A stretch of DNA of 64,000 nucleotides from Dyadobacter beijingensis DSM 21582 (lineage in GTDB: Bacteria > Bacteroidota > Bacteroidia > Cytophagales > Spirosomataceae): positions 124,001 through 188,000 of the forward strand of contig NZ_KB907786.1 in assembly GCF_000382205.1 (NCBI RefSeq). Direction: 5' to 3'. Positions 30,879-52,906 of this stretch are shown piece by piece (positions within the stretch are counted from its first letter, which is position 1; each line of letters starts with the position of its first letter). The notes under the pieces were generated by a model. That model was not told where the DNA came from, searched no databases, and saw only the letters and a list, made by a program, of their open reading frames with translations. A program made the translations under genes and the position numbers.

Positions 30879-31065
30879 ACATTACCACCTAAACCTTCTC
30901 AAATTTACTTGTCTTGTTCGTCTGCGACAGTTTTGTAATGTTTTCTCATAGTGTGTGAATGGATATGCAGGGCTTCATTGGACACTTCAATTTGAAAATC
31001 AATCTCCTGAAACGAAAAACGGATGTCCGATCGGCTGGAAACGAATGATTATCCGGCAATAAAAA

Positions 31066-31092
31066 ATGCTCCCCGGAAAATCCGGGAAGCAT
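31066..31092 (-). terminator. Terminator of FG-GAP gene 1
   Basis: AATGCTCCCCGG pairs with CCGGGAAGCATT with one mismatch and a short loop. On the minus strand it is followed by a T run (plus-strand AAAAAA). Confidence 0.85.
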
Positions 31093-31115
31093 TCTGCACT
31101 TCTAAGCCTCCACTA

Positions 31116-34100
31116 CTATTTTTTGATGAGAACGCGGTGTGAGGTTTGCGTACCATCTTTCCGGTTGATCATCAAAATATAAGTTCCTGGTGTCAGGTGT
31201 TTTACATCGAGTTCCGTTTGCGGTCTGGTCGACGTCAATGCTGTCGAGCCGTTCGATGAAATCAGTTGCAACGACTTGATTTGATCTGCATTGTCTGTTT
31301 TTATGAACAGCCTTTCGGATACTGGGTTGGGGTATACGGAGATAATGTCTCGGTATTCCGGCGTTTTATCCAGGATTTTGGCTGTTTCTACTTCTTCCCC
31401 AACGAGCTCCGGCACACTGCCTACCGGGACATAAAGAAGATATTCCGGAACATACCGCCATGGGCTGTACACTTGTCCGGTTAGGGCTGTCGCAAGTTCA
31501 TATTTGATCCTCACACGAACGCGCGTCGCCGACCATTGCTTATTGATCAGATTTTTCATCTCCGAGCCAGACAAGGACATGTAGGAAGCCTGGGCTCCAT
31601 CGGATGCGGTACTGTTAGTCATTGGGGCATTTTGGGGCTTGGTAAAAGCTGTACCGTGTTGCGCCCAGCTCCAAAGTAAGCGGCCGTTGTTTCTTCCCAG
31701 GAAGGATGTTGGATAAAGACTCACGCCAGCGTTATTTTGGCTTGTCTGAGACGCCGTCATAACGGTAGTGAGATTTGTGTTGTACAAACGAATGTTGTTA
31801 CGCTTGTTTTTGCCGGTAGCCCCATCGTTGCCGAAGTACGCCCATGTAACCCCACCATTCGTAATACCGCTTTGATCGTAACCTGGAATGCCCACAAGAA
31901 TGTCACCGTAGCCATCGCCATTCAAATCTCCCGCACCGGAAACGGATTCTCCCATATGAGATTCAACTTGTGCCCCCGTTGTCGAAAAGGCTGCTGAGGT
32001 GACAATGCCACCCGGAGATCCATGGAATACCCAAACCCCTCCGCCATTAGCCGAAAGACCATCATATTGAGGTGCACCCACCACTACATCATCGTATCCA
32101 TCACCATTCACGTCGGTAAAACCGCCCACAGACTTACCGAATGATGCATTAGATTGATTGGCATCCAACAGTGTTTTGTTCCCTATACTGCAACCGCCGT
32201 TGGAGCCATAGAATACGCTGGCGACACCCTCATCACTTTGCCCATTGTCATGTTTGGGCGCTCCGACAATCACGTCGCCGTAGCCGTCACCATTTACATC
32301 GCCGGCGCCCGACACCGAGGTTCCAAATTCAGCGTCTGCCTGATCAAGGCTGAGAGAATTACTCCATGGTGTGTTCGATGGTATACCTGCGATATTGCCA
32401 TACCAGATAAAGGCAGCTCCCTCTTTGTTTTTGCCGATATTAGCCTGGCTGGCGCCCGCAATAATGTCGTTGAATCCGTCTCCATTTACGTCACCGGCAT
32501 TGTCCAGGCTGTTACCCATTTTTGCTCCGGCAATACCGGAATAAACGATCGTTCCCGGCGATATCACTCCATTTGCGGATCCCAGGTACACGAACACTGC
32601 ACCGCATTGACTGATGGCAGGATTGGATTTGCTGGCGAAAGGAGCACCCACAATCACGTCATCGTACCCGTCACGATTAATGTCGCCGGCATCTGAGACA
32701 CTGATTCCGAAACCTTGGTTAGCGGCATACAGGGTCTTGGAGGGTGCTGATGCAATCCCTTGCGGTCCGCCTAGTATAATATACGCAGCCCCTACATTCA
32801 CACCGTTTTGTGCACCGCTTGCTCCAATAATTACGTCGTCGTAGCCATCCCCATTCGTGTCACCTGCTCCCGAGACAGAGCATCCCAAATGGGCGTTAAT
32901 TTCGTTGGAAGGAAAGCTGATATTTCCCACCGTTCCGGTCGCCGCGTCGCCATAGCTAATGAATGCAGCCCCTTCCCCGACTTGTCCCTGATCAAAATTT
33001 GGGGCGCCAACTATCATATCTTCAAGCCCATCTCCATTAATATCTCCTGCGTTACTTACTGATGAACCCGCCAGAGAACCGGAGACGGATGAATAGCCAG
33101 CTGCTTTCGGTAACGGACCAATATTTCCAGGTTTTCCATGATAAATATAGACTTGCCCTTCATCATTCTGACCGTGGTCATAAGTATAGCATCCAATGAT
33201 TATGTCGCTGTATCCGTCACCGTTGACATCGCCGGCACCAGCCACTGCACTTCCGAGCCAGCCGTCCCCCTGGTTGCTTTCGATCTTTGAAACCGGGGTT
33301 GCATTGAGTCCAAGTGAGGAACCCTGATAAATGAAAACAGCTCCTTCGTGGTTCTGCCCATTACTAAAAAATCTAGAACCGACGAGTATATCCCCGTATC
33401 CGTCGCCATTAACATCTCCTGCCGATGCGATAGACCAGCCGAATTGAGCTTCCAATTGCTCTCCTTCAATAATTTTATGTGGGTTGGGATTAATTCCGTT
33501 CTGGCCGCCGAGGTGGACATACACCGCGCCTTCATTGGAAAGTCCATTGTCAAACATATATGCTCCAATTGCGATGTCTGCGTATCCATCCCCGTTCACG
33601 TCACCTGCAGTGGAAACTACGTGGCCCAGGCGTGCATCAGGCTGGTTGATCTGGATTTTCAATGGCTGGCTTGCGATTACAGGTGTCGAATTGATCGAGC
33701 CGAGATAGACAAATGCGGCCCCTTCGTATAATTCGCCTTCGGTGTAAAGTCTGGCCCCTATGATAATGTCACTTGCTCCGTCTGCGTTAACGTCGCCTGC
33801 ACCGGCAACCGCGTAACCGAACATCGCTCCTGACTGGATATTGTCAAGGATTTCAGTTTTTGCAAGATTTGGGCCGCCGTTACCGCCGTAGTATAAGAAT
33901 GCAACACCTTCGTTCAATTGATCTTTGTCATACATATGTGCGCCTACCAGGAAATCGCTGTACCCATCCGCATTCACATCGCCGGCCAATGCTACCGAAA
34001 CGCCAAATCCGGCATCTGCCTGATCGGGTTGCAGGATTGTAAAATTACCTGGGTTGATCCCGATCGGCGCGTTTACCGGATCAACCGGGCCGCCATAATA

Positions 34101-35207
34101 TAGAAAGGCAGCGCCCTCATTGTTCTGACCATCTTCCCAGTACGGTGATCCGACAATCACGTCGCTGTAACCATCCTTGTTTACGTCTCCCGCGCTCGCC
34201 ACGGAGTAGCCCATTTGCGCCAGCGCCTGGTTTCGGTTGAGTCTTTGACCGTTCAGGCCAAGACCATTTGCAGACCCGGGGAAAACATAGGCGACACCTG
34301 CGTCCACACCATTCCAGTCGTATAGAGGTGCGCCAACGATCACGTCACTGTAACCGTCCTTATTCACGTCGCCTGCGCTCGACACCGAAAAGCCCAACCA
34401 GGCATTACTATGATCCAGTTCAATGGTTTTATCGGCGTCATTGGGATTGCCATTTGCCAGAATCGGGTCAATGGTCACGGGATATGCAGCGCCGTCCACT
34501 GCTACGTTAATTTCCACATGATCATTCACATAGGCCAGTGTGGCATCGAGTGGCTTTTTGTTGGCATCCCAGCAATGCAAATCGCTGTATACCAAAAAGT
34601 TTTCAACTTTGCCATTTGTGTCTTCATGATAGAAGCGGATTTCGTTCCGGGCGCCGTTTTGTGCCTTCAAGCCTTTTGCCGAAAGCCTTACCTGCAAGTT
34701 TCGCGTGTCTTCCGGTGCATTGCTGACGATAAAGTTCTGACGAACGCCGTCTTCGGTATTGATAAACTCTTCGGTAAAACCGTCGTGATCGATCTCCAAC
34801 TTATTTTCCTTATTCGAAGGTTCAGCGTCGGTTCGGGCGGAAAGGATCTTTTTGCCGTCGGCATAAATACCGTCATTCACCAGATGCAGTTTAAAGTTGT
34901 GACCCGCGGAATCCACCCGGTTCTGAACTGTCAGTTGGCCCGGCTTGTAGTATGCCCGCAGGTTCTGCTTTCTGTTAGGACTTTGAAGGGTTTGGGTCGC
35001 CTCGTCGTAGGAAATGTGATATTCCTGTTTGGCGATTTGTTCCTTAATGCGCTCAATGGCCGATTGCGGTACACCCGGAATCTCTTCTTTGACAGCGATT
35101 TCTTTGCTGCCCGGATGATTCCGCCAAAGGTCGGTGGTGAGATAACCCGCGGAACCGACCGCCAGGGCCATAGCTGCGATGAGCATGGACTTGTAAGTGT
35201 GTTTCAT
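31116..35207 (-). CDS. FG-GAP double-propeller protein with T9SS sorting domain, paralog 1
   Basis: 1,363 residues from the ATG at 35207. A short N-terminal hydrophobic export segment (about 7-24) is followed by a conserved domain (about 60-250, EYHISYD...LQSPNR...AAYPVTIDPI). Then come 14 FG-GAP repeats, each with an Asp-rich calcium loop such as AGDVNGDGYSDIIIG; repeat 13 starts FTDVNGDG instead. After a conserved region with NIRLYNTNL and TSFLGRNNGRLLWSW comes the C-terminal sorting domain (YPNPVSERLFIK ... SHRVLIKK), which marks it for type IX secretion. Fourteen repeats suit two seven-bladed propellers. It is the most diverged of the first four paralogs in the pre-sorting region. The ligand is unknown; an adhesin or binding role is inferred. 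Confidence 0.88.
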   Translation of the reverse strand: MKHTYKSMLIAAMALAVGSAGYLTTDLWRNHPGSKEIAVKEEIPGVPQSAIERIKEQIAKQEYHISYDEATQTLQSPNRKQNLRAYYKPGQLTVQNRVDSAGHNFKLHLVNDGIYADGKKILSARTDAEPSNKENKLEIDHDGFTEEFINTEDGVRQNFIVSNAPEDTRNLQVRLSAKGLKAQNGARNEIRFYHEDTNGKVENFLVYSDLHCWDANKKPLDATLAYVNDHVEINVAVDGAAYPVTIDPILANGNPNDADKTIELDHSNAWLGFSVSSAGDVNKDGYSDVIVGAPLYDWNGVDAGVAYVFPGSANGLGLNGQRLNRNQALAQMGYSVASAGDVNKDGYSDVIVGSPYWEDGQNNEGAAFLYYGGPVDPVNAPIGINPGNFTILQPDQADAGFGVSVALAGDVNADGYSDFLVGAHMYDKDQLNEGVAFLYYGGNGGPNLAKTEILDNIQSGAMFGYAVAGAGDVNADGASDIIIGARLYTEGELYEGAAFVYLGSINSTPVIASQPLKIQINQPDARLGHVVSTAGDVNGDGYADIAIGAYMFDNGLSNEGAVYVHLGGQNGINPNPHKIIEGEQLEAQFGWSIASAGDVNGDGYGDILVGSRFFSNGQNHEGAVFIYQGSSLGLNATPVSKIESNQGDGWLGSAVAGAGDVNGDGYSDIIIGCYTYDHGQNDEGQVYIYHGKPGNIGPLPKAAGYSSVSGSLAGSSVSNAGDINGDGLEDMIVGAPNFDQGQVGEGAAFISYGDAATGTVGNISFPSNEINAHLGCSVSGAGDTNGDGYDDVIIGASGAQNGVNVGAAYIILGGPQGIASAPSKTLYAANQGFGISVSDAGDINRDGYDDVIVGAPFASKSNPAISQCGAVFVYLGSANGVISPGTIVYSGIAGAKMGNSLDNAGDVNGDGFNDIIAGASQANIGKNKEGAAFIWYGNIAGIPSNTPWSNSLSLDQADAEFGTSVSGAGDVNGDGYGDVIVGAPKHDNGQSDEGVASVFYGSNGGCSIGNKTLLDANQSNASFGKSVGGFTDVNGDGYDDVVVGAPQYDGLSANGGGVWVFHGSPGGIVTSAAFSTTGAQVESHMGESVSGAGDLNGDGYGDILVGIPGYDQSGITNGGVTWAYFGNDGATGKNKRNNIRLYNTNLTTVMTASQTSQNNAGVSLYPTSFLGRNNGRLLWSWAQHGTAFTKPQNAPMTNSTASDGAQASYMSLSGSEMKNLINKQWSATRVRVRIKYELATALTGQVYSPWRYVPEYLLYVPVGSVPELVGEEVETAKILDKTPEYRDIISVYPNPVSERLFIKTDNADQIKSLQLISSNGSTALTSTRPQTELDVKHLTPGTYILMINRKDGTQTSHRVLIKK

Positions 35208-35326
35208 TTTGTGCTATGTTTTGGTAATTAATAGGATTTGGCAACTGCCGTATCAAATTTTACCCTTACCATTCTCCTGCAAAGAATCCGTTTAGCCAGT
35301 CGGTTATGGCAATGATTCTAAGGTAA

Positions 35327-35357
35327 AAGCGACCTGCCATTAATCAGCAGGCCGCTT
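35327..35357 (-). terminator. Hairpin after FG-GAP gene 2
   Basis: AAGCGACCTGC pairs with GCAGGCCGCTT (one mismatch, nine-base loop), 14 bases past the stop of the minus-strand gene. The U-tract is weak (TTTACC), so termination may be partial. Confidence 0.6.
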
Positions 35358-35370
35358 CGCTCGTTGCATA

Positions 35371-38300
35371 TCATCGTTTGACGATCACTTTCCTGCTGCT
35401 GGTCGAGCCGTCCCGGTTGGTGATGACCAGCAAATACGCACCGGTTTTCAGATCGCTTACATCTACTTCGCCTACTGCTTTCGGATAGCTCCGAAGAATC
35501 CGGCCGGCGGCATTCACCAGGTATATGGACTCCAATTGACCTGGATCAGGGATTTTAATGAATAATCTGTCAGCAACCGGATTGGGATATGCAACGAATG
35601 CCGACGCGCCATCTTCAAGCTGTGAAACCGGCCGTTGCGCATCGGACGTATTTTCAGTAACTTCTTCCGGCACGGGTGCATTATTAAAGCCAGCCAACTG
35701 GGACTGAACGTACCGCCAGGGGCCATATACCTGCCCTGTGATCGCGAGTGCGGGCGCGTACCGGGCACGCACGCGTAACTTCGTCGTAAGGCCGGCTTTG
35801 TCGACCAGGTTGCCCAGGAGCGTCGCGGCGCCGGTCGTATTGCTGAAAGAGGGCGTTGCACCGGTAAACTGGGTACTGGTGGTGATTGGATTGTTCGCAG
35901 TTTTCGAGAAGGGCATGCCCTGACCTCTGGTTTCCCAAACTAATTTGCCCTTGTTCCGGCCAATAAATGATTTTGCGAAAAGACCTGCTACAAAGTTAGG
36001 CTGATTGAATTGGCTGTGGCTGAGAGGGCTAACCAGATTGCTGTTCAAAAGCCGCACGCTGTTTCGCAATCCTTTGCTGTTATTTCCATAATAAACGAAT
36101 GTGCTCCCGGTCTTCTTCTGGCCGTTTGGATAACCGCTTGCACCGATAATCACATCGCTGTATCCGTCGCCATTAATGTCCCCGGCTGTTGCGGCGTCGC
36201 TTCCCAGCCTCGCTTCGTTGATGTCGGATTGAATGCTGAATGCGGCGGCCGGTTTGATGCCCGTAGAAGAACCGTGAAAGACAAACGCCGATCCCTCGTG
36301 CTGTTGGCCATCCGTGAAGTTGGCCGTGCTGGCGATGATGTCGCTGTATCCATCACCATTTACATCACCGGCAGTTTGTGCATTCTCACCGAAATAGGCA
36401 TCGATTTTATTAATTTCCAGTATTTCAAACGGGGTGGCGTTTGTGATGCCGCCCGACGCTCCGTAGTGAATGTAAATGATGCCCTCGTTGCTTTCCCCCT
36501 TATCGTAGTCCGGGGCGGAAACGAGTACGTCGGCATATCCGTCGCCGTTGATGTCCCCTGCACCGGCAACAGACCTGCCCATGAGCGCGTTGGTCTGGTT
36601 GCTTTGGAATTTCACAGCCGCATTGGTAGATGTCCCCGCAGCCGAGCCGTGAAAAATGAATGCAGCTCCTTCGTCAGTTTGCCCCTCATCGTACCAGTCG
36701 GCACCTACGATCACGTCGGCATATCCGTCACCGTTAACATCACCGGCGGATGCCACACAGCCGCCAAATCGCGCGTCGGGCTGGTTGAGTATTTGCAGGA
36801 TGGTCGGGTTGCCGGTCAGGCCATTTGCCGACCCTTTGTACACATAAGCTGAATTGACACCGTCCGCGCCAACGATGACATCCGCATAACCGTCGCGGTT
36901 TACATCACCGGCGCAAGCCACGGAGCCGCCCATATAACTGTCCGCAAAATTTCTTTCGAAATGAATCGCGGCCTGCGTAGACAAACCGGCAGCCGAGCCA
37001 TGGTAGATGAACACCGCCCCTTCGTAAGCCTGCCCATTGGCATAGGTATCCGCGCCCACGATGACGTCGGCATATCCATCGCCATTCACATCGCCGGCCC
37101 CCGCGACCGCCGCGCCAAATCGAGCGCCCGCCTTGTTTTCTTGCAGGATCACAGCTGTATTGGTATTAAGCCCGGCAGCGGAACCATAGTAGAGGAAAGC
37201 CAGCCCTTCGTCGACCTGCCCCATATCATAGTAGTTCGCGCCTACAATCACGTCATCGTAGCCGTCGCCATTCACATCCCCTGCCGATGCGACCGCGCAG
37301 CCGAGCTGACCGAATGCTTCACTACCCAGGATTTGTGTGAAGCCTGCTGTGCCGACACCCGTTGGGCCTCCGTGATACACGAGGACCAGTCCCTCATCGG
37401 CCTGTCCATTATCGAATGCGTAAGCTCCGACGATAATGTCACTATGTCCATCGCCATTCACATCACCCGCACTGGCCACCGAGCTGCCTAGCCAGGCGTC
37501 ACTCTGGTCGCTCTCGATCGTTGCTGCCGGCGTCGAAAGCAATCCGTTTGCTGAACCATGGTGGATAAACGCAGCGCCTTCGTTGTTTTGCCCCTTGTCA
37601 AAATACCGGGCCCCTACAACCAGGTCGCTGTAACCGTCGCCATTCACATCGCCGGCACAATTGACCGCCCATCCGTATTGCGCTTCCGTCTGATTGACTT
37701 CTAAGGTGCTGTTGGGAAGGTTGCCGACGCCTGCCGCTGTTCCGTGGTAGACCCAGACAGCGCCTTCATTGGCCTGACCGTTATCATACATGTAAATACC
37801 TATGGCAATGTCGGAGTACCCGTCCCCGTTTACATCCCCGGCCGACGATAGGGAGTGGCCCATCCGGGCGTCAGGCTGGTTGCTTTCGAGCACGATCGGG
37901 CTGCTGGTATCCAGGCCGTTGGCGCCTCCCTTGTAAATAAATGCGGCCCCTTCGGCGTCTTCTCCGTTATCGTAAAAGCGGGCGCCGATGAGGATATCGG
38001 AATAGCCGTCGGCGTTGATGTCCCCGGCGGGCGCGATGGCGTAGCCAAACAAGGCATCGGGCTGGTTGTATTCGAGAAATACGTTACTGCCGATTCCCGA
38101 AACTGCCCCATATACCAGCATTACGGCGCCTTCGTTATGCTGTCCGTTATCATACTCATGTGCGCCGTAGAGAATATCGCTCAGGCCGTCGGCGTTGACA
38201 TCGCCTGCCGTTGCAACGGACACGCCCCAGTTAGCATCCGCCTGCTGGCCGCCGGTCAGGTTCTTGAAGGGTAGCTGGTTTGACTTAATACCATTTGCAG

Positions 38301-39411
38301 ACCCCAGATACAGCAACACAACTCCTTCATTTGAAAACAGCGCATCGTAGTAAGGAACTCCCACCAGCACATCGCTGTACCCGTCGCCGTTGAAATCGCC
38401 TGCCGTTGCGACAGCATATCCTGCTTGTGCTCCTGCCTGATTGCCTTCCAGTGTCGCGCCCGCAAGACTTAAACCATTGGCAGTACCATTGAAGACGAAC
38501 GCTGCGCCCTCGTCGGCCTGCCCATTGTCGTATTTCGGCGCGCCTACGATGATGTCGCTGTATCCATCGCCATTTACATCCCCGGCGCTGGCTACCGAGA
38601 GGCCCAGCCAGGCATTACCCTGGTTGATATCAATGACTTTGTCCGCATTGTTCGGATTGCCGTTTGACACGATGGGATCGATCGTTACCGGGTAGGTGGC
38701 GTGCTCGACATCCACGCGGATGGCAATATCGTTACCGGTCAGTTCGAGGCTTGCCAAAAGCGGTTTTTGATTGGCGTCCCAGCAATGGAGGTCGTTGTAT
38801 ACCAAATGATCCTCGATTTTTCCATGTTTTGAATGGCTGTAAAAGCGGATTTCATTGGCTTCGCCCTGGCGTGCTTTCAGGCCATGGGCTTGCAGACGTA
38901 CCGTCAGCTCTTTGGTGCCTGAAGGTGCGGATTCTATGATGAAGTTTTGCCTTACACCATCCTCGTTATTGATAAATTCTTCTTTAAACCCGTCGTGGTG
39001 GATGCGGAGCGTGTTATCCCGCTGTTCCGTTGCGCCGGCAGAGCTGGTCTTATGAAGTAGTTCGCCATCGGCGAAAATACCTTGATGGATCAGGTCCAGG
39101 TTGAAATTATGTCCCGCGGAGTCGATACGGTTCCGAATGCTGAATTTGCCAGGTTTGTAACTTGCCCGAAGGTTATGGGCGCGGTTGGGACTTTGAAGGG
39201 TTTGCGATTGGGGGTCGTAAGAAATGTTATATTCCTGTTTGCCGAGCGTGCTTCGGATGTTACCAATCAGGTTTTCTGAAACCGGAAGCGCGTTCATGTC
39301 AGGGCTTTTTTCCGGCTTCCGGTTTTTGGCCTGGAAACCTTTGCGAATGACGGGGTATGCGCAGAATGCGATCACGGCCAGGAGAATGGATAGTCTGTGA
39401 AGTGTTTTCAT
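35371..39411 (-). CDS. FG-GAP double-propeller protein with T9SS sorting domain, paralog 2
   Basis: 1,346 residues if started at MKTLHRLSILLAVIAF (39411), which puts the export signal at the N-terminus; the frame is open to 39441. Same layout as its neighbours: conserved N-terminal domain with EYNISYD and ATYPVTIDPI, 14 FG-GAP repeats, the conserved block SVRLLNSNL ... KSFIGRNKGKLVWETRG, then a type A sorting tail (YPNPVADRLFIK ... SRKVIVKR). Repeat 10 is shortened after its calcium loop (GADGVNSAYVYKGS). Repeats 12 and 13 end in VS/AS rather than VG. Confidence 0.87.
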   Translation of the reverse strand: MKTLHRLSILLAVIAFCAYPVIRKGFQAKNRKPEKSPDMNALPVSENLIGNIRSTLGKQEYNISYDPQSQTLQSPNRAHNLRASYKPGKFSIRNRIDSAGHNFNLDLIHQGIFADGELLHKTSSAGATEQRDNTLRIHHDGFKEEFINNEDGVRQNFIIESAPSGTKELTVRLQAHGLKARQGEANEIRFYSHSKHGKIEDHLVYNDLHCWDANQKPLLASLELTGNDIAIRVDVEHATYPVTIDPIVSNGNPNNADKVIDINQGNAWLGLSVASAGDVNGDGYSDIIVGAPKYDNGQADEGAAFVFNGTANGLSLAGATLEGNQAGAQAGYAVATAGDFNGDGYSDVLVGVPYYDALFSNEGVVLLYLGSANGIKSNQLPFKNLTGGQQADANWGVSVATAGDVNADGLSDILYGAHEYDNGQHNEGAVMLVYGAVSGIGSNVFLEYNQPDALFGYAIAPAGDINADGYSDILIGARFYDNGEDAEGAAFIYKGGANGLDTSSPIVLESNQPDARMGHSLSSAGDVNGDGYSDIAIGIYMYDNGQANEGAVWVYHGTAAGVGNLPNSTLEVNQTEAQYGWAVNCAGDVNGDGYSDLVVGARYFDKGQNNEGAAFIHHGSANGLLSTPAATIESDQSDAWLGSSVASAGDVNGDGHSDIIVGAYAFDNGQADEGLVLVYHGGPTGVGTAGFTQILGSEAFGQLGCAVASAGDVNGDGYDDVIVGANYYDMGQVDEGLAFLYYGSAAGLNTNTAVILQENKAGARFGAAVAGAGDVNGDGYADVIVGADTYANGQAYEGAVFIYHGSAAGLSTQAAIHFERNFADSYMGGSVACAGDVNRDGYADVIVGADGVNSAYVYKGSANGLTGNPTILQILNQPDARFGGCVASAGDVNGDGYADVIVGADWYDEGQTDEGAAFIFHGSAAGTSTNAAVKFQSNQTNALMGRSVAGAGDINGDGYADVLVSAPDYDKGESNEGIIYIHYGASGGITNATPFEILEINKIDAYFGENAQTAGDVNGDGYSDIIASTANFTDGQQHEGSAFVFHGSSTGIKPAAAFSIQSDINEARLGSDAATAGDINGDGYSDVIIGASGYPNGQKKTGSTFVYYGNNSKGLRNSVRLLNSNLVSPLSHSQFNQPNFVAGLFAKSFIGRNKGKLVWETRGQGMPFSKTANNPITTSTQFTGATPSFSNTTGAATLLGNLVDKAGLTTKLRVRARYAPALAITGQVYGPWRYVQSQLAGFNNAPVPEEVTENTSDAQRPVSQLEDGASAFVAYPNPVADRLFIKIPDPGQLESIYLVNAAGRILRSYPKAVGEVDVSDLKTGAYLLVITNRDGSTSSRKVIVKR

Positions 39412-39496
39412 TGGCTGTTTGTTTTGGGTGAAACAATGCATTGAAATGCCTGAAAACAGGCAGCCAGCAAAATGGACGGCACGAATAGGGATTGGT

Positions 39497-39529
39497 AAAA
39501 AGCCTCCCCGCTGTGGCAGGGAGGCTTTT
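39497..39529 (-). terminator. Terminator of FG-GAP gene 3
   Basis: AAAAGCCTCCC pairs with GGGAGGCTTTT around a ten-base loop, with A/T runs on both sides. The stem is the same as that after FG-GAP gene 4. Confidence 0.9.
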
Positions 39530-39543
39530 CGTGCTAAAACCGG

Positions 39544-43596: not shown

Positions 43597-43715
43597 AGTG
43601 TGAACCTGGTTTAAATGAAACAATCAGTAAATGGCGAACGCCGCCCTAAATTTTACCGATGTCACAAACCTGATATCAAACCGTTTATTCGCCGGAGGGG
43701 GCAATGAATTAAAGG

Positions 43716-43745
43716 AAAAAGCCTCCCACGGCAAGGGGAGGCTTT
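43716..43745 (-). terminator. Terminator of FG-GAP gene 4
   Basis: AAAAAGCCTCCC pairs with GGGAGGCTTTT across a short loop, 12 bases past the stop. The same stem follows gene 3, so the duplicated unit may have included its terminator. Confidence 0.9.
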
Positions 43746-43757
43746 TGAAGTGTTCGG

Positions 43758-46700
43758 CTAGCGCCGGATGAGGATTTTATGTGAAGAAGATTTGCCGTTT
43801 GCCCGATCAAGGATGAGGATATGAACGCCTCCCGGAAGGTTGCTTACATCGATATCTTTTTCATACCGCGGCAACTGGTGAACCAGCTTACCCGCCGTGT
43901 TGAAAAGCCGCACCGAGCGGACATCATTCGGGTTGGCGACTTGCACCGACAGCCTGTCCGTCGCCGGGTTCGGGAAGAGCGTCACGACGTCTTCCAATTC
44001 CTCGGAGGGTTCTGCCTTGCGTTTAATGGTTTCGGCCATCGCTTCTTCCGGTACAGGGGCATTGTTGATGCCCGAAAGCTGCGGCTGGATGTAGCGCCAC
44101 GGCCCGTACATCTGACCGGTGATGGCGAGTACAGGCGAGTAGCGGACGCGCACGCGGACTTTGGTGCTTACACCCTGTTTCACACCCGTTATTTTCAACT
44201 CCGTACCGGTTCCTGCGAGGTTGGAGAAATTGGGAGCAAGGAAACTGTACAGATTGCTGGTTGTAATGGGGTAAATGGAAATCTTCGAGAAAGGCACTCC
44301 CTGTCCCTTGTATTCGATGGCCAGCTTACCTTTGTTCACACCCAGAAACGATTTGGCAAACAGCCCGGTACCAAAGTTGCCCGCATTAAATTGGGCATGG
44401 TTTATAGGCGTTGTCATATCGGAAGTGTTGTACAGCCGGACGTTGTTGCGAAGGCTTTTGCCGTTGTTGCCGTAAAAAACCGTCGTTGCACCGGCGTCTG
44501 CAACAGCTCCGTTGTTAAAAGCAGGTTCACCCACTAGAACGTCACTATATCCATCCCCATTCACGTCCCCAGCTCCGGCAACTGACCATCCCAGGCGCGC
44601 TTGCAGTTGTTCTCCTTCTATGCTAAACGACGCGGCGGTCTTTGTGCCATCGGGTGAGCCGTGAAAGACATATACTTTCCCTTCTTGATTTAACCCATTG
44701 CTGAGATTATAGCTTCCTACAATTACATCACTGTATCCATCACCATTCACATCACCCGCGCCGCCCACAGCAGCTCCGAAATATGCACCAGCAACGTTTC
44801 CTTCCAAGACAGTAGGAGCTGGGCCATTGCCAATACCGATGTTTGTACCGTAGTAAACAACTGCGATGCCTTCATCTACCTCAGGGTGGTCATGGCGGCT
44901 TGCTCCTGCAATAATGTCACCGTAACCATCCCCATTCACATCGCCAGCAGAGGCAATTGAGATTCCGAAACGGGCATCGACCTGATTGCTTTCGATTGAT
45001 TTAACATAGTTGGTATTCATGAGGCCCGCAGAGCCGTGGTAAATGTAGATAGCGCCCTCGCTTTGCTCTCCGTAACTGGCACCCCACGCCCCTGCAACGA
45101 CATCCGCGTAGCCATCCCCATTGACATCGCCGGCAGCAGATACCGATTCTCCAAAGTGGGAGTTAATTTGACCCGCTAAGGTGACCGGCGCGCTAATACC
45201 ATTTTGAGTGCCATAATAGACAAAGATATTTCCTGTGTTTGCAAACGCAGGAGCGCCGATAGCAAAGTCGGCATAGCCATCGCGATTGATATCTCCTAGT
45301 CCCGCAACTATATATCCGAAGTCGGTATCGTTCTTATTTGCTTGGATTGACAGTGGATTCGCAGCCTGATCGATACCGGTATTTGAACCGTAATATATAA
45401 ATGCTGCACCTTCATTCGTGTGGCCGTCCGTGTATTCTTTTGCTCCGACAATAACTTCGTCATATCCGTCACCATTGATATCTCCCGCACTGGCTACCGA
45501 GCCTCCGAAGTAACTATTAGCCTGGTTTTTTTGCAAGATGTTATAGTTGGCGGTATTTAAACCGGTTGCGCTTCCTTTATAGACAAAGGCAACTCCCTCA
45601 CTCGCTTCCCCATTATCGTACGTTGGTGCACCCACGATCACATCGCTATATCCATCCCCATTCACATCGCCGGCGCTCGCTACCGACAGACCCATTTGAG
45701 CACTTGCTTTATTGTTTGTCACAAATACAGATTCATTCGTACCAACACCTTCCGCACCCCCCTGGTAAATGAACGCATGTCCTTCGTCCACTTGTCCATT
45801 ATCAAATGTGTAACAGCCAATTACAATATCGCTGTAACCATCCCCATTCACATCACCCGCGCTGGCAACGGCCGTTCCGAACCAACCTTCTACCTGATTA
45901 CTTTCAAGCAACGAAGCATAGCTGTTTCCAATGCCGTCTTTGGAACCGTGGTAGATGAATACGCCGCCCTCGTTGTTCTGGCCGAAGTCGCAGCGCTGGC
46001 AGCCTATGAGAATGTCGGCGTAGCCGTCCCCGTTCACGTCACCTGCGCTGGCAAGCGAGGTGCCCATCGCTGCATCCACGGAATTTGCTTCAAAAGTCTT
46101 TTTAGGAAATGGATCAAAACCCGAAGACATACCCATGTATAGAGATACTTTGCCTTCGTTGGATTCACCGTTATCATATTGAATTGCACTCACTAGGAAA
46201 TCACTGTAACCGTCGCCATTGACATCCCCTGCCGTACTTACCCTGTAACCCATTGTCGCTCCCGGCTGGTTACCTTCAATGATTGATGGATTATTTATGT
46301 CCAATCCATTCGCACCGCCTTTGTAGACAAACACGGCACCTTCTTGATTTTCAACATTGGTATAAAATCTTGCGCCTACAAGAACATCGCTGTAACCGTC
46401 GCCGTTAATGTCTCCCGCCGATGAAACTGAGAATCCGAATTGGGCATTGGCTTGGCTGGCCGTTAGCTGTTCTACTTTCTTGTAGTTGTTTTGAGCTCCG
46501 TAAATTACCATTGCAGCTCCCTGATTATTTATGCCAAAATCGAATTTGGCAGCTCCTAAGATTACATCACTGAATCCATCAGCGTCGATATCTCCCGCAG
46601 GCGCAACAGATATTCCATAGTTATCACCGGGATTGCCCGTGAAAAAATCTTTCGGAGTCGCATTGGCAGCAATACCCTGTGCCGAGCCAAAGTACATTTT

Positions 46701-47807
46701 TACGATGCCGTCATCCTTTCCATTGATGTTAAAGAGCGGAGCCCCCACGAGTATATCGCTGTAACCATCCCCATTAAAATCACCGGCAGTTGCCACAGAA
46801 TATCCCATCTGCGCGCTATCCTGGTTACATTGCAATATTGTTCCGTTTGCACTCAGGCCATTCGCCGTTCCGGGATACCAGATTGCCGCACCCTCATCAG
46901 TCTGGCCCAGATCGTATCTCGGTGCACCTATGATTACATCTGAATAACCATCCCCATTCACGTCGCCAGCGCTCGAAACAGAATATCCCAGCCACATGCT
47001 GCTTTGGTTCATCTCAATCACCTTATTGGAATTCTGCGGCGTCCCGTTCGTAATGATCGGATCGATCGTCACCGGGTATGCGGCTCCTGCCACGTCCACA
47101 TTAATCTCGATGCGCTTATTCACGTATGCCAGCGTGGCGTCGAGCGGCTTTTTGTTCGCGTCCCAGCATTGGAGGCTGTTGTAGACCAGCTCGTTGCGGG
47201 TTTCGCCGTTGGATTCGGTGTAGAAGCGGAGTTCGTTGCCGTTGCCTTGCTGCACTTTGAGGCCGCGGGCGGTCATGCGTACCTGCAATGCGCGGGTGCC
47301 TGCCGGCGCTTCGCCGATGATAAAGTTCTGGCGGACACCGTCTTCATTATTGACAAATTCTTCCGTGAATGCCGTGTGGCTGATCTGCACTTTGTTATCC
47401 TTGTGATCCGCTTTGGCGTTTGCCTGCGGAGTATAGAGGGGCTTGCCGTCGGCGTAAATGCCTTCGTTGATCAGGTCCAGTTTGAAACGGTGGCCCGTCG
47501 TGTCTACGCGTGTCTGGACGGTGAGTTGGCCCGGACGGTAATAGGCGCGGAGGTTCTGCGCCCGGTTAGGGCTTTGCAGCGATTGCACCTTATCGTCGTA
47601 AGAAATGTGGTATTCCTGCTTTTCCAACGCGCTGCGGATGTCGGCCATCGTTGCTTCCGTCACGCCCGAGGGCAATGCTTCGGTGTTTTGAGCGATCGTT
47701 TTTTCGGGCAATGGGTGAGCTAGCCGGCTTTTCTGCCAAACCCCGATGCCAAGAAGGGTGGTGGAGGCCAAAGCAACCGCCATGGCCTGTTGATAAATCT
47801 TTTTCAT
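43758..47807 (-). CDS. FG-GAP double-propeller protein with T9SS sorting domain, paralog 4
   Basis: 1,349 residues from MKKIYQQAMAVALASTTLLGIG (47807); the open frame extends to 47867, but this start gives a proper export signal. Conserved N-terminal domain (EYHISYD ... AAYPVTIDPI), 14 FG-GAP repeats, pre-sorting block NVRLYNTSD ... KSFLGVNKGKLAIEYKG ... AITGQMYGPWRYIQ, linker APVPEEAMAETIKR and sorting tail FPNPATDRLSVQ ... SHKILIRR. The middle of the gene looks more AT-rich by eye than its two ends, which could reflect exchange between paralogs at the ends. Confidence 0.88.
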   Translation of the reverse strand: MKKIYQQAMAVALASTTLLGIGVWQKSRLAHPLPEKTIAQNTEALPSGVTEATMADIRSALEKQEYHISYDDKVQSLQSPNRAQNLRAYYRPGQLTVQTRVDTTGHRFKLDLINEGIYADGKPLYTPQANAKADHKDNKVQISHTAFTEEFVNNEDGVRQNFIIGEAPAGTRALQVRMTARGLKVQQGNGNELRFYTESNGETRNELVYNSLQCWDANKKPLDATLAYVNKRIEINVDVAGAAYPVTIDPIITNGTPQNSNKVIEMNQSSMWLGYSVSSAGDVNGDGYSDVIIGAPRYDLGQTDEGAAIWYPGTANGLSANGTILQCNQDSAQMGYSVATAGDFNGDGYSDILVGAPLFNINGKDDGIVKMYFGSAQGIAANATPKDFFTGNPGDNYGISVAPAGDIDADGFSDVILGAAKFDFGINNQGAAMVIYGAQNNYKKVEQLTASQANAQFGFSVSSAGDINGDGYSDVLVGARFYTNVENQEGAVFVYKGGANGLDINNPSIIEGNQPGATMGYRVSTAGDVNGDGYSDFLVSAIQYDNGESNEGKVSLYMGMSSGFDPFPKKTFEANSVDAAMGTSLASAGDVNGDGYADILIGCQRCDFGQNNEGGVFIYHGSKDGIGNSYASLLESNQVEGWFGTAVASAGDVNGDGYSDIVIGCYTFDNGQVDEGHAFIYQGGAEGVGTNESVFVTNNKASAQMGLSVASAGDVNGDGYSDVIVGAPTYDNGEASEGVAFVYKGSATGLNTANYNILQKNQANSYFGGSVASAGDINGDGYDEVIVGAKEYTDGHTNEGAAFIYYGSNTGIDQAANPLSIQANKNDTDFGYIVAGLGDINRDGYADFAIGAPAFANTGNIFVYYGTQNGISAPVTLAGQINSHFGESVSAAGDVNGDGYADVVAGAWGASYGEQSEGAIYIYHGSAGLMNTNYVKSIESNQVDARFGISIASAGDVNGDGYGDIIAGASRHDHPEVDEGIAVVYYGTNIGIGNGPAPTVLEGNVAGAYFGAAVGGAGDVNGDGYSDVIVGSYNLSNGLNQEGKVYVFHGSPDGTKTAASFSIEGEQLQARLGWSVAGAGDVNGDGYSDVLVGEPAFNNGAVADAGATTVFYGNNGKSLRNNVRLYNTSDMTTPINHAQFNAGNFGTGLFAKSFLGVNKGKLAIEYKGQGVPFSKISIYPITTSNLYSFLAPNFSNLAGTGTELKITGVKQGVSTKVRVRVRYSPVLAITGQMYGPWRYIQPQLSGINNAPVPEEAMAETIKRKAEPSEELEDVVTLFPNPATDRLSVQVANPNDVRSVRLFNTAGKLVHQLPRYEKDIDVSNLPGGVHILILDRANGKSSSHKILIRR

Positions 47808-47876
47808 ACTCGTGTGTTTGTTTGGTTTAAAATCACGGTCAAATGCCCGCGTTTTCAAATTTTGCAAAGACGGAAA

Positions 47877-47923
47877 ACAAAAGGGCTAAGCGATTATTCT
47901 GAGGTTATCATCGCTTAGCCCTT
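47877..47923 (-). terminator. Terminator of FG-GAP gene 5
   Basis: AAGGGCTAAGCGA pairs perfectly with TCGCTTAGCCCTT (13 pairs) around a 17-base loop and is followed on the minus strand by TTGTTTT. Confidence 0.88.
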
Positions 47924-47958
47924 GGTCCGGTTGGTAGGTGGAATCTGCCGTAGGATAT

Positions 47959-50900
47959 TTAGTGAAGTAAAATTGGGTGACTACTTTCTGTGGCGTCGGT
48001 GTAATGGATCCGGAGGACATATTGGCCCGCCCGGATGCCTCGTGTGTCTAGGTACTGCGATGCGCCTTTCCAGGAACGGACCGGTCTGCCGCTGGTCGAG
48101 AACATCGTCACTTTGTCAATTTCCCGACCGAAGCCGGGTTGAACGTGCAAATTAACGCTTGCCGGATTGGGATATACGCGTGTCCCGGTAAGATTTCTTG
48201 CCAACGGCTGACGTCCTGTATTCTCCGGCGCAGGCGCGCTGCCCGTACCGGACAGGCAGCCCGACCAATACCGCCAAGGCCCGTACATTTGGCCCGTCAA
48301 CGCCCATACAGGATTGTACCGCACGCGTGCCCGCAAACGCGTTTGCGAACCTTCTTTAATCACCTTATTTTTCAATTCAATGCCTGCGCCCGCCAACACG
48401 TTAAATCCCTTTTGACTTGCCGTAAAAGCGGCACTATTGGTAATGCAATTGTTGCCGCCTTGTGAAAATCCCTGCCCGGCCGGGCGCGTTTCCCATACGA
48501 GTTTGCCCTGGCTGCGGCCCAGGAATGATCTGGAAAACAGCCATAAGCCAAAATCAACCTGACTTTTCTGCGTATGATCGAGCAATGTCGTGAGATCGGA
48601 GTTGTAGAGGCGCACATTGTTGCGAACGCCGGTCCCATTATTTCCGTAGTAAACAAATGCCGCATCGGCGTCGGTTTGGCCTGAACTGAAATTAGGCGAT
48701 CCGATAAGCAGGTCGCTGTCGCCATCGCCGTCCACATCCCCGCCAGCCGCCACCGACCAGCCGAAAAAGTCGAAGGCGTCGGTCTGGTTGCCGGTAATGC
48801 GCTGCGGGCCGGGATGGAGGCCGGTAGGCGAGCCATAATATAGGATGACGAGGCCTGTCATGACGGCAGTTTTATCATCCCAATACCAGGGCTCTCCGAT
48901 CACGACGTCACTATACCCGTCCGCATCCAGATCCCCGGCCCCGGCAACGGACTCGCCCATCGCGGCAGCCATACCCGCCTCATGCGAATAGAGATTAGTT
49001 ACATTGCCGGCGGTAATGCCTCCGGGCGCGCCGTAGTAAAGAAACACAGCGCCGTCGCCGTTGTCGTACCCATGCGCGCCGACGATCACGTCATCGAAAC
49101 CATCCGCATTCACATCCCCGGCCCCGGAAACGTCCCATCCGAATTGTGCAAAGTCCTGCGTGCATTTGATCCATTGAACAGACATCGAATCGATTGAGCC
49201 GGCATGGCCGTAGCCGATCAGGATACCCCCGGCATCCAAATCTCCCAGACTGTACGCGCCGGCCACGATGTCGGGCTGGTCATCGCCATTTACGTCATGC
49301 GCACCGGATACGGCATTGCCCAGCCGGGCGTCGTCCTGGTCGCTTTCGATGATCCGGGCCTGGGTGGCATCGGGGCCGGCGGAAGTTCCGGGATAAATGT
49401 AGATGGCCCCTTCTTCCGATTGCCCGTTGGAATAGTTCATGGCCCCTATGACGATTTCCGAAAAGCCGTCCGCATTCAAATCCCCCGCATGTGCGACCGC
49501 ACACCCGTACCACGCACCCGCGACGTTACTTTCCAGCCGGATCGGGATGGGCTGAATACCGGCGGACGAGCCCAGGTACACAAAAGCGGCACCTTCCTCG
49601 TCCTGTCCATTGTGGTAATGCATGGCTCCGACGATAAGGTCGGCATAGCCATTGCCATCCACATCGCCGGCGGCCGATACCGACGTTCCGAAAGCCGCAT
49701 CGGCCTGGTCGGCTTCCAGCAGATTGGACGGGTTGCTGTCAATCCCATTCGCCGTGCCGCGGAATACGAATGCGGCACCTTCATCGGCTTGGCCGTTGTC
49801 GTAACGCGGCGCGCCTACCACGATGTCGTCATAGCCATCGCCGTCGATATCCCCGGCGCCGGATACGGAATAGCCGAATTGCGATTCGGGCTGATTGACC
49901 ATCAATGCCGAAGCCGGCACAGGCCCGGAAGTAGTGCCGTGCCAAATCATCACCGCGCCCTCGTTGTTCTGGCCGTGGCTGTAAAGGTGGCAGCCGATGA
50001 CGACGTCGCTCACGCCATCGCCATCCACATCGCCCGCGCTGGCAACGGATTGTCCCAGGTATGCATTTGCCTGCCCGCTTTTCAAAGTTGACAGCGGCTT
50101 TTTACCCATACCTGCCTGTGAACCGGGATAAATATACACGACACCTTCATTGGCCGGACCTTTGCCCTGCAACCGGCTGCCGATCATGAGGTCGGCATAG
50201 CCATCGGCGTTTACATCGCCTACGCAGGCCACAGATCGCCCCATTTCCTCATTCATCTGCACCCCGGCGATAGCGGCCGACGGGTTTGCATTAATGCCGA
50301 ATGCGGAGCCGGAATAGATGGTCGTCAAACCGACGTCGGCCTGTACTTTGTCATAATGCGGTGCGCCAACGGCAATGTCGGCATAACCGTCCGCGTCGAG
50401 ATCGCCTGCGGAGGCGACCGCGCTGCCCATATGCGCATACGCCTGGTTTGACTGTATGACGGTAGGTTTGTTCCCCAACCCTTTCGGCGAACCAAAATAC
50501 AGGAATGCAGCTCCCTCTTCTGTCTGGCCCTGACTGTAAAAAGGTGCCCCGGCAAGCACATCGCCATACCCGTCGGCGTTTATGTCACCTGCGCCGGCCA
50601 CCGACATGCCCAGCATTGCATTGGCCTGATTTACTTCCAGTATGGCCGGTTGATTCGCGTTGATGCCTGATTTTGATCCATAAAAAACAAATGCAGCTCC
50701 TTCGTTGACCTGCCCCTGATCATACAGATTTGCACCAATGACCAGGTCGCTGAAACCGTTTCCGTCGATATCACCAGCCAAACCTACCGCAATGCCCATT
50801 TGGGCTTCAAACTGGTTACTTTCTAAAATCGCGACGGGATTCGGTTTAATGCCTTTGGCCGAACCTAAATAGACAAACACCGCTCCTTCATCACTTTGTC

Positions 50901-51990
50901 CCTTATCATAAAACGGCGCACCGATGGCGATGTCGCTTGCCCCATCCCCATTGATATCCCCCGCGCTGGAAACCGAATAGCCCATTGCCGCATCGGCCTG
51001 GTTGCATTCGATCAGGTGGGGAAGGGGATTGAGCCCATTTGTAGAACCATAATACAAAAAAGCGGCGCCCTCATCATTTTCTCCGTGGTCGTAATGTGGT
51101 GCGCCGGCGATCACATCACTATATCCATCCAAATTCACATCCCCGGCCGAGGCTACCGAAAACCCCATTAATGCATCGGCCTGGTCGCTTTCCAGCAGGG
51201 CATCCGCATTGGCCGGGGAACCATTCGCCACTAGCGGATCGATCGTAACAGGATAAGCGGCGTTTTCGACATCGACGGTGATCTGAATGTGCTGGTCGTA
51301 GTGGGTCAACCGCGCTGTCAACGGCTTGTCTTCGGCATCCCAGCAATGCAGGTCGCGATAGATGAGCGCGGGCCGGGCCGGGTTGTTTTTGGTATAAAAC
51401 AACAACTCATTCTCGTTCCCCGCCATCGCGGCGAGCCCGGTGGCGGCAAGGGTTACCTGCAACTGCCGCGTGCCTGCGGGAGCCCGGTGGACGATGAAAT
51501 TCTGCCGGACGCCGTCTTCGTTATTGATATATTCTTCGTCGAAGCCGTTGTGCCGGATCGTCAGTTTGTTGCCCTCGGTTTTGGTGTCTGCTTGTTTATC
51601 AGGTAAATAAATGAGTCGCCTGTCCGCAGCAATGCCTTCGTGGTCCAGCTGTAACCGGAAACTGCGGCCTGCGGAATCAATGCGGTTTTTAATGGTGAAA
51701 TGCCCCGGGCGGTAGTAGGCGCGGAGGTTATGCCGCCGGTTCGGACTTTGCAATATGCATTTTTGCCGGTCATAAGAAATGTGGTATTCGCGTGCGGCGA
51801 TCGTGGCCGAAAGCCCGGGAGGAACGGCGCCGTGTGGGCTTTCGGAGGATTTTGAGGAAGTGCTGGGGTTAATATTGTTCGACTTATGGTCCGGTATTTC
51901 GAACAAAATGCAGGTTAGCAATGCGTAGATCAGAAAAGCTACAACGGGCGTTGCGATGGACAATGGAAGGAGTTTACCGGTTTGTTTCAT
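47959..51990 (-). CDS. FG-GAP double-propeller protein with T9SS sorting domain, paralog 5
   Basis: 1,343 residues from the ATG at 51990. N-terminal hydrophobic segment (LSIATPVVAFLIYALLTCILF, about 8-28, preceding residues basic), then the conserved N-terminal domain (REYHISYD ... AAYPVTIDPL), 14 FG-GAP repeats and the pre-sorting block NVRLYNSDL ... RSFLGRSQGKLVWETRP ... ALTGQMYGPWRYW, and a diverged sorting tail (VYPNPASVNLHVQ ... SSHPILLH). It is the most divergent of the five. Repeat 11 has a degenerate calcium loop (AHDVNGDDQPDIVAG), and several loops use DIDGDG or DLDADG forms. It is the most upstream gene of the minus-strand array and appears GC-richer than paralog 1. Confidence 0.87.
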   Translation of the reverse strand: MKQTGKLLPLSIATPVVAFLIYALLTCILFEIPDHKSNNINPSTSSKSSESPHGAVPPGLSATIAAREYHISYDRQKCILQSPNRRHNLRAYYRPGHFTIKNRIDSAGRSFRLQLDHEGIAADRRLIYLPDKQADTKTEGNKLTIRHNGFDEEYINNEDGVRQNFIVHRAPAGTRQLQVTLAATGLAAMAGNENELLFYTKNNPARPALIYRDLHCWDAEDKPLTARLTHYDQHIQITVDVENAAYPVTIDPLVANGSPANADALLESDQADALMGFSVASAGDVNLDGYSDVIAGAPHYDHGENDEGAAFLYYGSTNGLNPLPHLIECNQADAAMGYSVSSAGDINGDGASDIAIGAPFYDKGQSDEGAVFVYLGSAKGIKPNPVAILESNQFEAQMGIAVGLAGDIDGNGFSDLVIGANLYDQGQVNEGAAFVFYGSKSGINANQPAILEVNQANAMLGMSVAGAGDINADGYGDVLAGAPFYSQGQTEEGAAFLYFGSPKGLGNKPTVIQSNQAYAHMGSAVASAGDLDADGYADIAVGAPHYDKVQADVGLTTIYSGSAFGINANPSAAIAGVQMNEEMGRSVACVGDVNADGYADLMIGSRLQGKGPANEGVVYIYPGSQAGMGKKPLSTLKSGQANAYLGQSVASAGDVDGDGVSDVVIGCHLYSHGQNNEGAVMIWHGTTSGPVPASALMVNQPESQFGYSVSGAGDIDGDGYDDIVVGAPRYDNGQADEGAAFVFRGTANGIDSNPSNLLEADQADAAFGTSVSAAGDVDGNGYADLIVGAMHYHNGQDEEGAAFVYLGSSAGIQPIPIRLESNVAGAWYGCAVAHAGDLNADGFSEIVIGAMNYSNGQSEEGAIYIYPGTSAGPDATQARIIESDQDDARLGNAVSGAHDVNGDDQPDIVAGAYSLGDLDAGGILIGYGHAGSIDSMSVQWIKCTQDFAQFGWDVSGAGDVNADGFDDVIVGAHGYDNGDGAVFLYYGAPGGITAGNVTNLYSHEAGMAAAMGESVAGAGDLDADGYSDVVIGEPWYWDDKTAVMTGLVILYYGSPTGLHPGPQRITGNQTDAFDFFGWSVAAGGDVDGDGDSDLLIGSPNFSSGQTDADAAFVYYGNNGTGVRNNVRLYNSDLTTLLDHTQKSQVDFGLWLFSRSFLGRSQGKLVWETRPAGQGFSQGGNNCITNSAAFTASQKGFNVLAGAGIELKNKVIKEGSQTRLRARVRYNPVWALTGQMYGPWRYWSGCLSGTGSAPAPENTGRQPLARNLTGTRVYPNPASVNLHVQPGFGREIDKVTMFSTSGRPVRSWKGASQYLDTRGIRAGQYVLRIHYTDATESSHPILLH

Positions 51991-52152: not shown

Positions 52153-52228
52153 TGTTCATACGTAAACTGAATGGCTGCGAATCAGATGGATGGTTGGCTA
52201 TCCAGGCTGCACTGAGCCGTTTCTAACA

Positions 52229-52906
52229 TTATTTCTGCACCAAAGCTTCCAGCATTTTTTCGGCCAGGAACTGGTTGCCCGCGTCGGTCAAATGCACGCG
52301 GTCGCTGGTGAGAATGCCTTTCTCCTTGTTTTCAGGATTATTTTTGGCCAGATAATCAAGGAAATGCTTGCGGAGGTCGAGCAGTTGCAGGCCGTTGCGC
52401 GTCGCGATCTCGCGGATCAGTTTGGAATACTGGTTCAAATCGCCGTCCTGCTGGTTGGAATTATCATTGCGCTCGCCGATGACGGTCGGCGTGCAGACGA
52501 TCACGCGGATGTTCTGCGCTTTGAGTTTTTTGATCAACGCCTCGTAAAACTTCACATATTTGTCGGGATCCGTGCCGGTTCCGGACGATGCTTTGTGCCA
52601 AACATCGTTGATACCCACATAAATGAATACGACATCCGGCTTTTTGGCCAGCACATCGTCTTCGAGGCGCAGATAAAGATCGTACACCTTATTGCCGCCG
52701 ATGCCCGCGCCGATCAGCTCGTACTGGCTGTCCTGGCCCTTGGATTTCAGCATTTCACCGACTTTGGTAATGTATCCCGTCGGGCTCACGCCGGCCTGGG
52801 TAATGGAATCGCCGAAGAAAACGACGCGTATGGGTTTGTCCTGGCGCATAGCCAGCAATGGCAGCGCGATAACGGCAATCTGAAATAGTTTGAAAAATAC
52901 CCGCAT
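52229..52906 (-). CDS. SGNH/GDSL-family hydrolase (secreted)
   Basis: 225 residues. A short signal (MRVFFKLFQIAVIALPLLA) is followed by the SGNH blocks: catalytic Ser in VVFFGDSITQAG (about residue 33), GIGGNK, VGINDVWH, and the Asp/His pair in DRVHLTDAGN. These enzymes are esterases or lipases that often deacetylate polysaccharides. The gene is separate from the mod operon upstream, with a heptamer repeat between them. The substrate is unknown. Confidence 0.9.
   Translation of the reverse strand: MRVFFKLFQIAVIALPLLAMRQDKPIRVVFFGDSITQAGVSPTGYITKVGEMLKSKGQDSQYELIGAGIGGNKVYDLYLRLEDDVLAKKPDVVFIYVGINDVWHKASSGTGTDPDKYVKFYEALIKKLKAQNIRVIVCTPTVIGERNDNSNQQDGDLNQYSKLIREIATRNGLQLLDLRKHFLDYLAKNNPENKEKGILTSDRVHLTDAGNQFLAEKMLEALVQK

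What the first reader, a model, noticed from the sequence alone, without database searches (positions are those of the whole stretch)
31116..51990. Five tandem giant FG-GAP proteins, each with exactly 14 repeats
I counted the AGDvNgDG-type calcium loops in each of the five proteins by reading the translations. All five have 14, in five genes of 1,343-1,363 codons (alternative starts aside). FG-GAP proteins usually fold as seven-bladed propellers, so 14 implies two complete propellers in series, held constant across strongly diverged paralogs. With signal, shared N- and C-terminal domains and T9SS tails, this looks like a dedicated surface-protein family expanded in place. The double propeller is inference from the count.
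Basis: partly seen in the sequence, partly recalled or inferred. Interest (0 to 1): 0.75.

Follow-up and report, generated by a model that had tools for sequence, protein, structure and literature searches.

The report
Twin seven-blade propeller surface-protein array
Five neighbouring genes of a bacterium (likely Dyadobacter) each encode a large protein with exactly 14 repeats that are predicted to fold into two seven-bladed, integrin-like propellers and likely serve as calcium-stiffened adhesins on the cell surface; related genomes carry one to six such genes at the same spot, and in three of them one gene looks like a hybrid of two different types of array member.

Summary
Five minus-strand genes (31116-51990) each give 14 separate PF01839 stretches, and all 70 calcium loops are intact. 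An AlphaFold2 model of one paralog (pLDDT 91.6) matches whole seven-bladed integrin-alpha propellers twice, at model residues 208-637 and from 636 on, so 7+7 is supported there; the other four were not modelled. A terminator-like hairpin follows each gene. Four of five type IX tails are above cut-off, the fifth is marginal. The N-domain is predicted to be a super-beta-sandwich. In fetched stretches of the genus, 92 of 98 complete members have 14 blades; others have 7 (2), 21 (1), 12 (2), 11 (1). The array lies in a slot shared with 15 other genomes, holding 1-6 copies. Three short genes there look like fusions of two paralog types; two are exactly seven blades short, one is two short. Tandem bacterial integrin-type propellers were inferred in 2011 (PMC3192720), so the kind is known; the type IX tails, slot and fusions are the fresh part. 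Function is inferred: a glycan-directed, calcium-stiffened adhesin (about 0.5).

The parts
31116..35207 (-). gene 1 (P0001, 1363 aa): N-domain, 14 FG-GAP blades, C-domain, T9SS tail
   Evidence: 14 PF01839 stretches and Por_Secre_tail
35371..39441 (-). gene 2 (P0002; likely start ATG at 39411, 1346 aa): same architecture, 14 blades
   Evidence: length as database entry P0062
39544..43623 (-). gene 3 (P0003; likely start ATG at 43596, 1350 aa): same architecture, 14 blades
   Evidence: length as P0026
43758..47867 (-). gene 4 (P0004; likely start ATG at 47807, 1349 aa): same architecture, 14 blades; residues 71-1268 modelled
   Evidence: length as P0006
47959..51990 (-). gene 5 (P0005, 1343 aa): most diverged paralog, 14 blades, marginal T9SS tail
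47037..47642 (-). gene 4 N-domain (about residues 76-277), predicted super-beta-sandwich
45747..47036 (-). gene 4 propeller 1 (residues 278-707), predicted
44454..45752 (-). gene 4 propeller 2 (residues 706 to about 1138), predicted
44073..44450 (-). gene 4 conserved C-domain (about residues 1140-1265)
   Evidence: alignment A1; C-domain HMM hits 107 of 125 proteins
43767..43979 (-). gene 4 T9SS type A sorting tail (residues 1297-1367)
   Evidence: Pfam and NCBIfam above cut-off
31779..34406 (-). gene 1 blades 1-14
36031..38616 (-). gene 2 blades 1-14
40198..42786 (-). gene 3 blades 1-14
48589..51177 (-). gene 5 blades 1-14
47880..47923 (-). terminator-like hairpin after gene 5
   Evidence: -28 kcal/mol for the gap, z -4.24
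43717..43746 (-). terminator-like hairpin after gene 4
   Evidence: z -3.29; also in the scan
39497..39530 (-). terminator-like hairpin after gene 3
   Evidence: z -5.00
35326..35358 (-). terminator-like hairpin after gene 2
   Evidence: z -3.16
31063..31095 (-). terminator-like hairpin after gene 1
   Evidence: z -3.90
29938..30837 (+). nucleotidyltransferase-like gene: shared flank of the slot on the thrB side
52190..52888 (+). unnamed 232-aa gene, with modCBA (53071-55399): shared flank on the other side

Best explanation
[quoted passage not shown] Shown: 14 repeats in each, an intact calcium loop in every repeat, four type IX tails above cut-off and one marginal, SprA and C25-peptidase genes in the genome, and a shared slot holding one to six copies in relatives. 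Predicted: the 7+7 fold (one paralog modelled), the N-domain fold, a terminator hairpin after each gene and hence separate transcripts. Inferred: secretion, calcium in each blade loop, and binding of polysaccharide or other surface ligands through the propeller faces and the N-domain. On this reading the tandem copies give the cell several receptors with different faces; recombination between misaligned blades of neighbouring genes contracts the array and makes hybrid receptors, and counts that leave whole propellers persist best.
Against: No ligand, expression or localisation data. Signal peptides were judged by eye only. The gene 5 tail is below both curated cut-offs as a protein. The best fold match of the N-domain, GLMP, is a lysosomal membrane protein, not a sugar enzyme, and Foldseek alone reaches only TM 0.51. 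Counts that are not multiples of seven are real: 12, 12 and 11 in the genus; 9, 12, 12, 13, 13, 19, 19, 20, 20 among 125 relatives; ten of 37 in a second set; 13 and 13 in one genome elsewhere in the phylum. So whole propellers are not strictly required, or such genes are failing. One of the three fusions is off by two, not seven, and in the G011 fusion residues 586-765 resemble no one type clearly. The terminator scan was at chance level overall, 22 against 19.8 in shuffles, and lists only the hairpin after gene 4 among the gaps it covered. No excess similarity at offset seven, so a doubling of one propeller left no trace.
Confidence: 0.5

Rival explanations
1. Polysaccharide-capture scaffolds rather than adhesins: the N-domain and propellers hold glycans at the surface to feed SusC/D-type uptake systems, so nutrition, not attachment, is the benefit.
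For: N-domain fold shared with lyases and glycosidases; a SusC/SusD pair lies 5.5 kb beyond the array's end in the window.
Against: The neighbours shared across genomes are thrB, a nucleotidyltransferase gene, an unnamed gene and modCBA; Sus genes did not turn up in the fetched stretches, but most of these end before that distance, so this is weak. No catalytic domain was listed by Pfam at E up to 1.
Confidence: 0.25
2. Variable surface receptors under diversifying pressure (phage, protist grazers or kin recognition): the array exists to generate and lose variants by recombination.
For: Fusion genes, 1-6 copies per genome, broken copies in several genomes, a terminator-like hairpin after each gene.
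Against: In this genome the paralogs share only six exact stretches of 20 nt or more, longest 30, so there is no sign of recent conversion here; no dN/dS or population test was done.
Confidence: 0.15
3. The number 14 is only inherited: all five descend from one 14-repeat gene and the count carries no structural meaning.
For: Gene types recur across species, so most 14s are not independent; off-counts exist.
Against: Relatives also have 21, 28 and 7, and the model closes at blade 7.
Confidence: 0.1
4. One open superhelix or a single 14-bladed ring instead of two propellers.
For: No linker between repeats 7 and 8.
Against: Seven-bladed integrin propellers align at two adjoining places with rmsd 2.3-2.6 over 383-385 residues each.
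Confidence: 0.02

Closest known systems
Bacterial integrin-type FG-GAP propellers of Chouhan et al. 2011 (PMC3192720; abstract and the section on the search in bacteria read)
   Same: PF01839 repeats of about 60 residues, one calcium site per repeat, some proteins with 14 signatures read as two tandem seven-bladed domains, including four such entries in one Rhodobacterales strain
   Different: Those authors limited any role to the cytoplasm; here type IX tails and likely signal sequences point outside. They report neither a slot with varying copy number nor fusions in the parts read.
Integrin alpha subunit beta-propeller (for example alpha-5, alpha-V, alpha-6)
   Same: Seven-bladed propeller fold with FG-GAP and calcium loops; closest solved structures by sequence and by fold
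   Different: Two propellers in series, a calcium loop in every blade, no integrin leg domain among the Pfam hits, a type IX tail at the C-end
T9SS type A cargo proteins
   Same: C-terminal sorting tail (TIGR04183, PF18962), and SprA in the genome
   Different: The tail of gene 5 is marginal
Repetitive beta-propellers amplified from single blades (Pereira and Lupas 2022, PMC9218822; abstract, part of one section and passages read)
   Same: Amplification by blades, blade numbers biased to a family median (peaks at 7 and 14 in WD40)
   Different: Here blades within a protein are diverged (about 48% identical on average) and three observed changes look like fusions between array members

Membership tests
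integrin-type FG-GAP beta-propeller (PF01839) | FG-GAP repeats above the curated cut-off | tested here: met
   316-346 bits against 22.1, 14 stretches in 5 of 5
integrin-type FG-GAP beta-propeller (PF01839) | seven blades per closed propeller | tested here: met
   predicted model of one of five paralogs: two whole propellers; the other four not modelled
integrin-type FG-GAP beta-propeller (PF01839) | calcium-binding loop in the blades | tested here: met
   sequence pattern 70 of 70; metal binding itself not tested
integrin alpha subunit | thigh/calf (integrin alpha) domains after the propeller | tested here: not met
   no such Pfam domain among the hits listed at E up to 1 in 5 of 5
T9SS type A cargo | C-terminal sorting domain above cut-off | tested here: met
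   4 of 5 in Pfam and NCBIfam; gene 5 below both cut-offs as a protein, above in the genome search
T9SS type A cargo | Sec signal peptide | tested here: inconclusive
   hydrophobic N-termini seen by eye; no predictor at hand
T9SS type A cargo | T9SS machinery in the same genome | tested here: met
   SprA, five C25 peptidases, PorU not singled out, 115 matches to the sorting tail; Gld proteins not searched
T9SS type A cargo | surface display or release | not testable with these tools
   needs cell fractionation
super-beta-sandwich (galactose-mutarotase-like) domain for the N-terminus | fold match over most of the domain | tested here: inconclusive

The most novel reading that the evidence does not exclude
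The slot between the thr and mod genes is a recombination-driven receptor foundry: neighbouring twin-propeller genes cross over between misaligned blades, whole propellers are gained or lost in units of seven blades, and each contraction leaves a new hybrid surface receptor, a natural experiment in which the propeller, not the blade or the gene, is the unit that selection keeps.
Probability: 0.3. Interest if true: 0.65.

Novelty: new variant of a known kind. Interest (0 to 1): 0.48.

Why it matters
Bacterial integrin-type propellers were described in 2011 without a known function, and were then placed in the cytoplasm. A type IX tail on a twin propeller puts these likely on the cell surface, where integrins act, and gives a genus with 1-6 copies at one slot in which deletion and complementation are straightforward. 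The hybrids with 7 or 12 blades are ready-made test pieces for the question whether a propeller must close with seven blades to be kept.

Tried and rejected
Doubling of one ancestral seven-blade unit: not visible in sequence, since mean blade identity at offset 7 (0.471) is no higher than at other offsets (0.455-0.502), in 45 of the 91 proteins with 14 blades and both end domains. Recent gene conversion between the five genes: no window of 30 codons above 0.84 nucleotide identity and six exact stretches of 20 nt or more, longest 30. One operon: made unlikely by a hairpin after each gene, although the simple promoter, terminator and TAnnTTTG scans were all at chance level. Off-count proteins as assembly collapse of near-identical repeats: not shown; their highest blade identity is not clearly above that of the others (0.720 against 0.679, Mann-Whitney p 0.18, 22 against 238, with overlaps between protein and locus rows). 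Five off-count rows (P0131, P0134, P0142, P0147, P0150) stop 35-119 residues after the start of their last blade and may be cut; contig ends were not checked. P0127 and P0159 have gaps of more than 350 residues between detected blades and are likely undercounted. P0055 (13 blades) has the contig length of G043 and is likely the broken gene seen there in L051. A Pfam or solved-structure family for the N-domain by sequence: none convincing. Papers: no paper holds 'Dyadobacter' with 'FG-GAP', nor 'FG-GAP' with 'T9SS', in the library searched; that on Dyadobacter HH091 (PMC9606717, passages only) holds neither 'integrin' nor 'propeller'. Other searches were seen as listings only. Genome searches scored only the two best first-look candidates per genome, so their misses are soft.
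Full report
What was checked. Pfam's FG-GAP model gives 14 stretches in each of five proteins; a type IX sorting tail is listed for each, above the Pfam cut-off in four. NCBIfam agrees; the tail of gene 5 is below cut-off as a protein but reaches 27 bits in the genome search. The calcium loop is intact in 70 of 70 repeats and the paralogs share 41-61% of their residues. Repeats are 62 residues apart with no linker in the middle.

Expression units and export. A hairpin follows each gene (z -3.2 to -5.0), which suggests five separate transcripts; the simple terminator scan was at chance level and listed only the one after gene 4 among the gaps it covered. The genome has SprA, five C25 peptidases and 115 matches to the type A tail. 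Signal peptides were judged by eye.

Whose genome. The window's genome is in the same genus, so likely Dyadobacter. At E up to 1e-50 the full-length model hits 31 of 222 genomes of the family, all 31 within this genus, that is 31 of its 48 (two candidates scored per genome).

Counts in relatives. Among 125 proteins (five of the window, 120 listed of 7,822 hits) an iterated blade model counts 14 in 95, 21 in 18, 28 in 3, and 9, 12, 13, 19 or 20 in nine. These are the best-scoring hits, not a random sample, and include near copies of the window's proteins. In fetched stretches of the genus there are 120 distinct ORFs with blades; 22 were set aside because they are cut by the stretch or lack the N- or C-domain. 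The other 98 have 14 (92), 7 (2), 21 (1, counted as 22 because one blade was hit twice), 12 (2) and 11 (1). The match list was cut at its end, so this is not exhaustive. A second protein set, found with the N-domain of a distant relative, has blades in 37 of 48: 14 in 25, 7 in 2, other numbers in 10. In 395 genomes spread over the phylum, 11 had a full-model match, the window's own among them; stretches were fetched from nine of the ten others. There, nine ORFs have an N-domain: 21, 14, 21, 21, 21, 7 and 7 blades, and 13 and 13 in two genes of one genome whose N-domains run into a contig end; three ORFs without N-domain have 4, 10 and 13. So multiples of seven dominate but are not a law.

The slot. 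In 14 other genomes the genes lie between the nucleotidyltransferase gene (next to thrB) and the unnamed gene with modC, with 1 to 6 N-domains between these flanks: 6 (two genomes), 5 (one), 3 (two), 2 (three) and 1 (six); a 15th, G025, left out, shows both flanks around one gene. G041 shows one flank only, and G028 has at least four genes running into a contig start. In G001 and G004 the stretches fetched show such genes, two in tandem in G004, without these flanks, and the window's own genome has two more members elsewhere, so the family is not confined to the slot. Some copies are broken by stops or frame changes. Trees of 39 N-domains and 40 C-parts show types that recur across species: a first type (gene 5), a middle type (genes 3 and 4) and two end types (gene 1, and one seen in other genomes). 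Gene 2 has a C-part inside the middle group but an N-domain of unsettled place, so it may itself be an in-register hybrid; this was not tested.

Fusions. Position-specific blade models (60 proteins to build, 32 held out, accuracy 0.67 against 0.07 by chance) read the 7-blade gene of G044 as blade 1, an unclear blade, then 10-14; the 7-blade gene of G011 as 1-5, an unclear blade, then 14; and the 12-blade gene of G016 as 1-4, then 7-14. Windowed comparison: G044 is middle-type (79-90%) up to about residue 405 and end-type (69-83%) from 406; G016 is middle-type (65-93%) up to about 540 and end-type (70-93%) from 496; G011 is middle-type (70-95%) up to about 630 and end-type (66-89%) from 721, while windows from 586 to 765 match no one type clearly (51-59%). 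Trees agree: N-domain with the middle type, C-part with an end type, in all three. This is what unequal crossing-over between array members would leave. Two of three are short by exactly one propeller. With three cases, found after the fact, this is suggestive only; the 11-blade and the other 12-blade gene were not tested for fusion.

Reading. The anatomy fits a surface protein: secretion tail, twin propellers with a calcium loop per blade, and a super-beta-sandwich in front. Attachment to polysaccharide is my best guess at function and is not tested. Bacterial tandem integrin-type propellers were described in 2011 (PMC3192720; abstract and one section read), where a role in the cytoplasm was assumed. 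A bias of blade numbers to whole propellers is reported for WD40 (PMC9218822; abstract, part of one section and passages read). The finding is a well-supported variant of a known kind, with the slot and the hybrids as the fresh part.

Noticed in passing
7171-11526, minus strand: A single 1451-residue ORF joins an AcrB-type RND permease (5-1045) to a HlyD/CusB membrane-fusion domain (1141-1373), beside an outer-membrane efflux gene and a response regulator.
   Followed up: no
53071-53964 and relatives: modC is only 58-78% identical to its counterparts in the other genomes, while its neighbours modB and modA are 75-94% identical.
   Followed up: no
L050, L051, L052, L048, L114: Broken FG-GAP members in the slot of several relatives: frame changes or stops split genes into pieces such as 9+5 or 6+8 blades.
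   Followed up: partly
P0009, P0013, P0050, P0086, P0101: Close relatives with 20, 19, 13, 12 and 9 blades that share a similar uneven spacing pattern; P0009 is named Dyadobacter jiangsuensis and P0013 lies on an 8.46 Mb contig.
   Followed up: partly
20998-25621, minus strand: A SusC/SusD-type pair lies 5.5 kb beyond the end of the array.
   Followed up: no
L103:3235-8928: A 1898-residue member with 21 blades in genome G026, which also has the 14-blade array.
   Followed up: no
35371-39441, minus strand: Gene 2 has a C-part in the middle-type group but an N-domain of unsettled place, so it may be an in-register hybrid.
   Followed up: no
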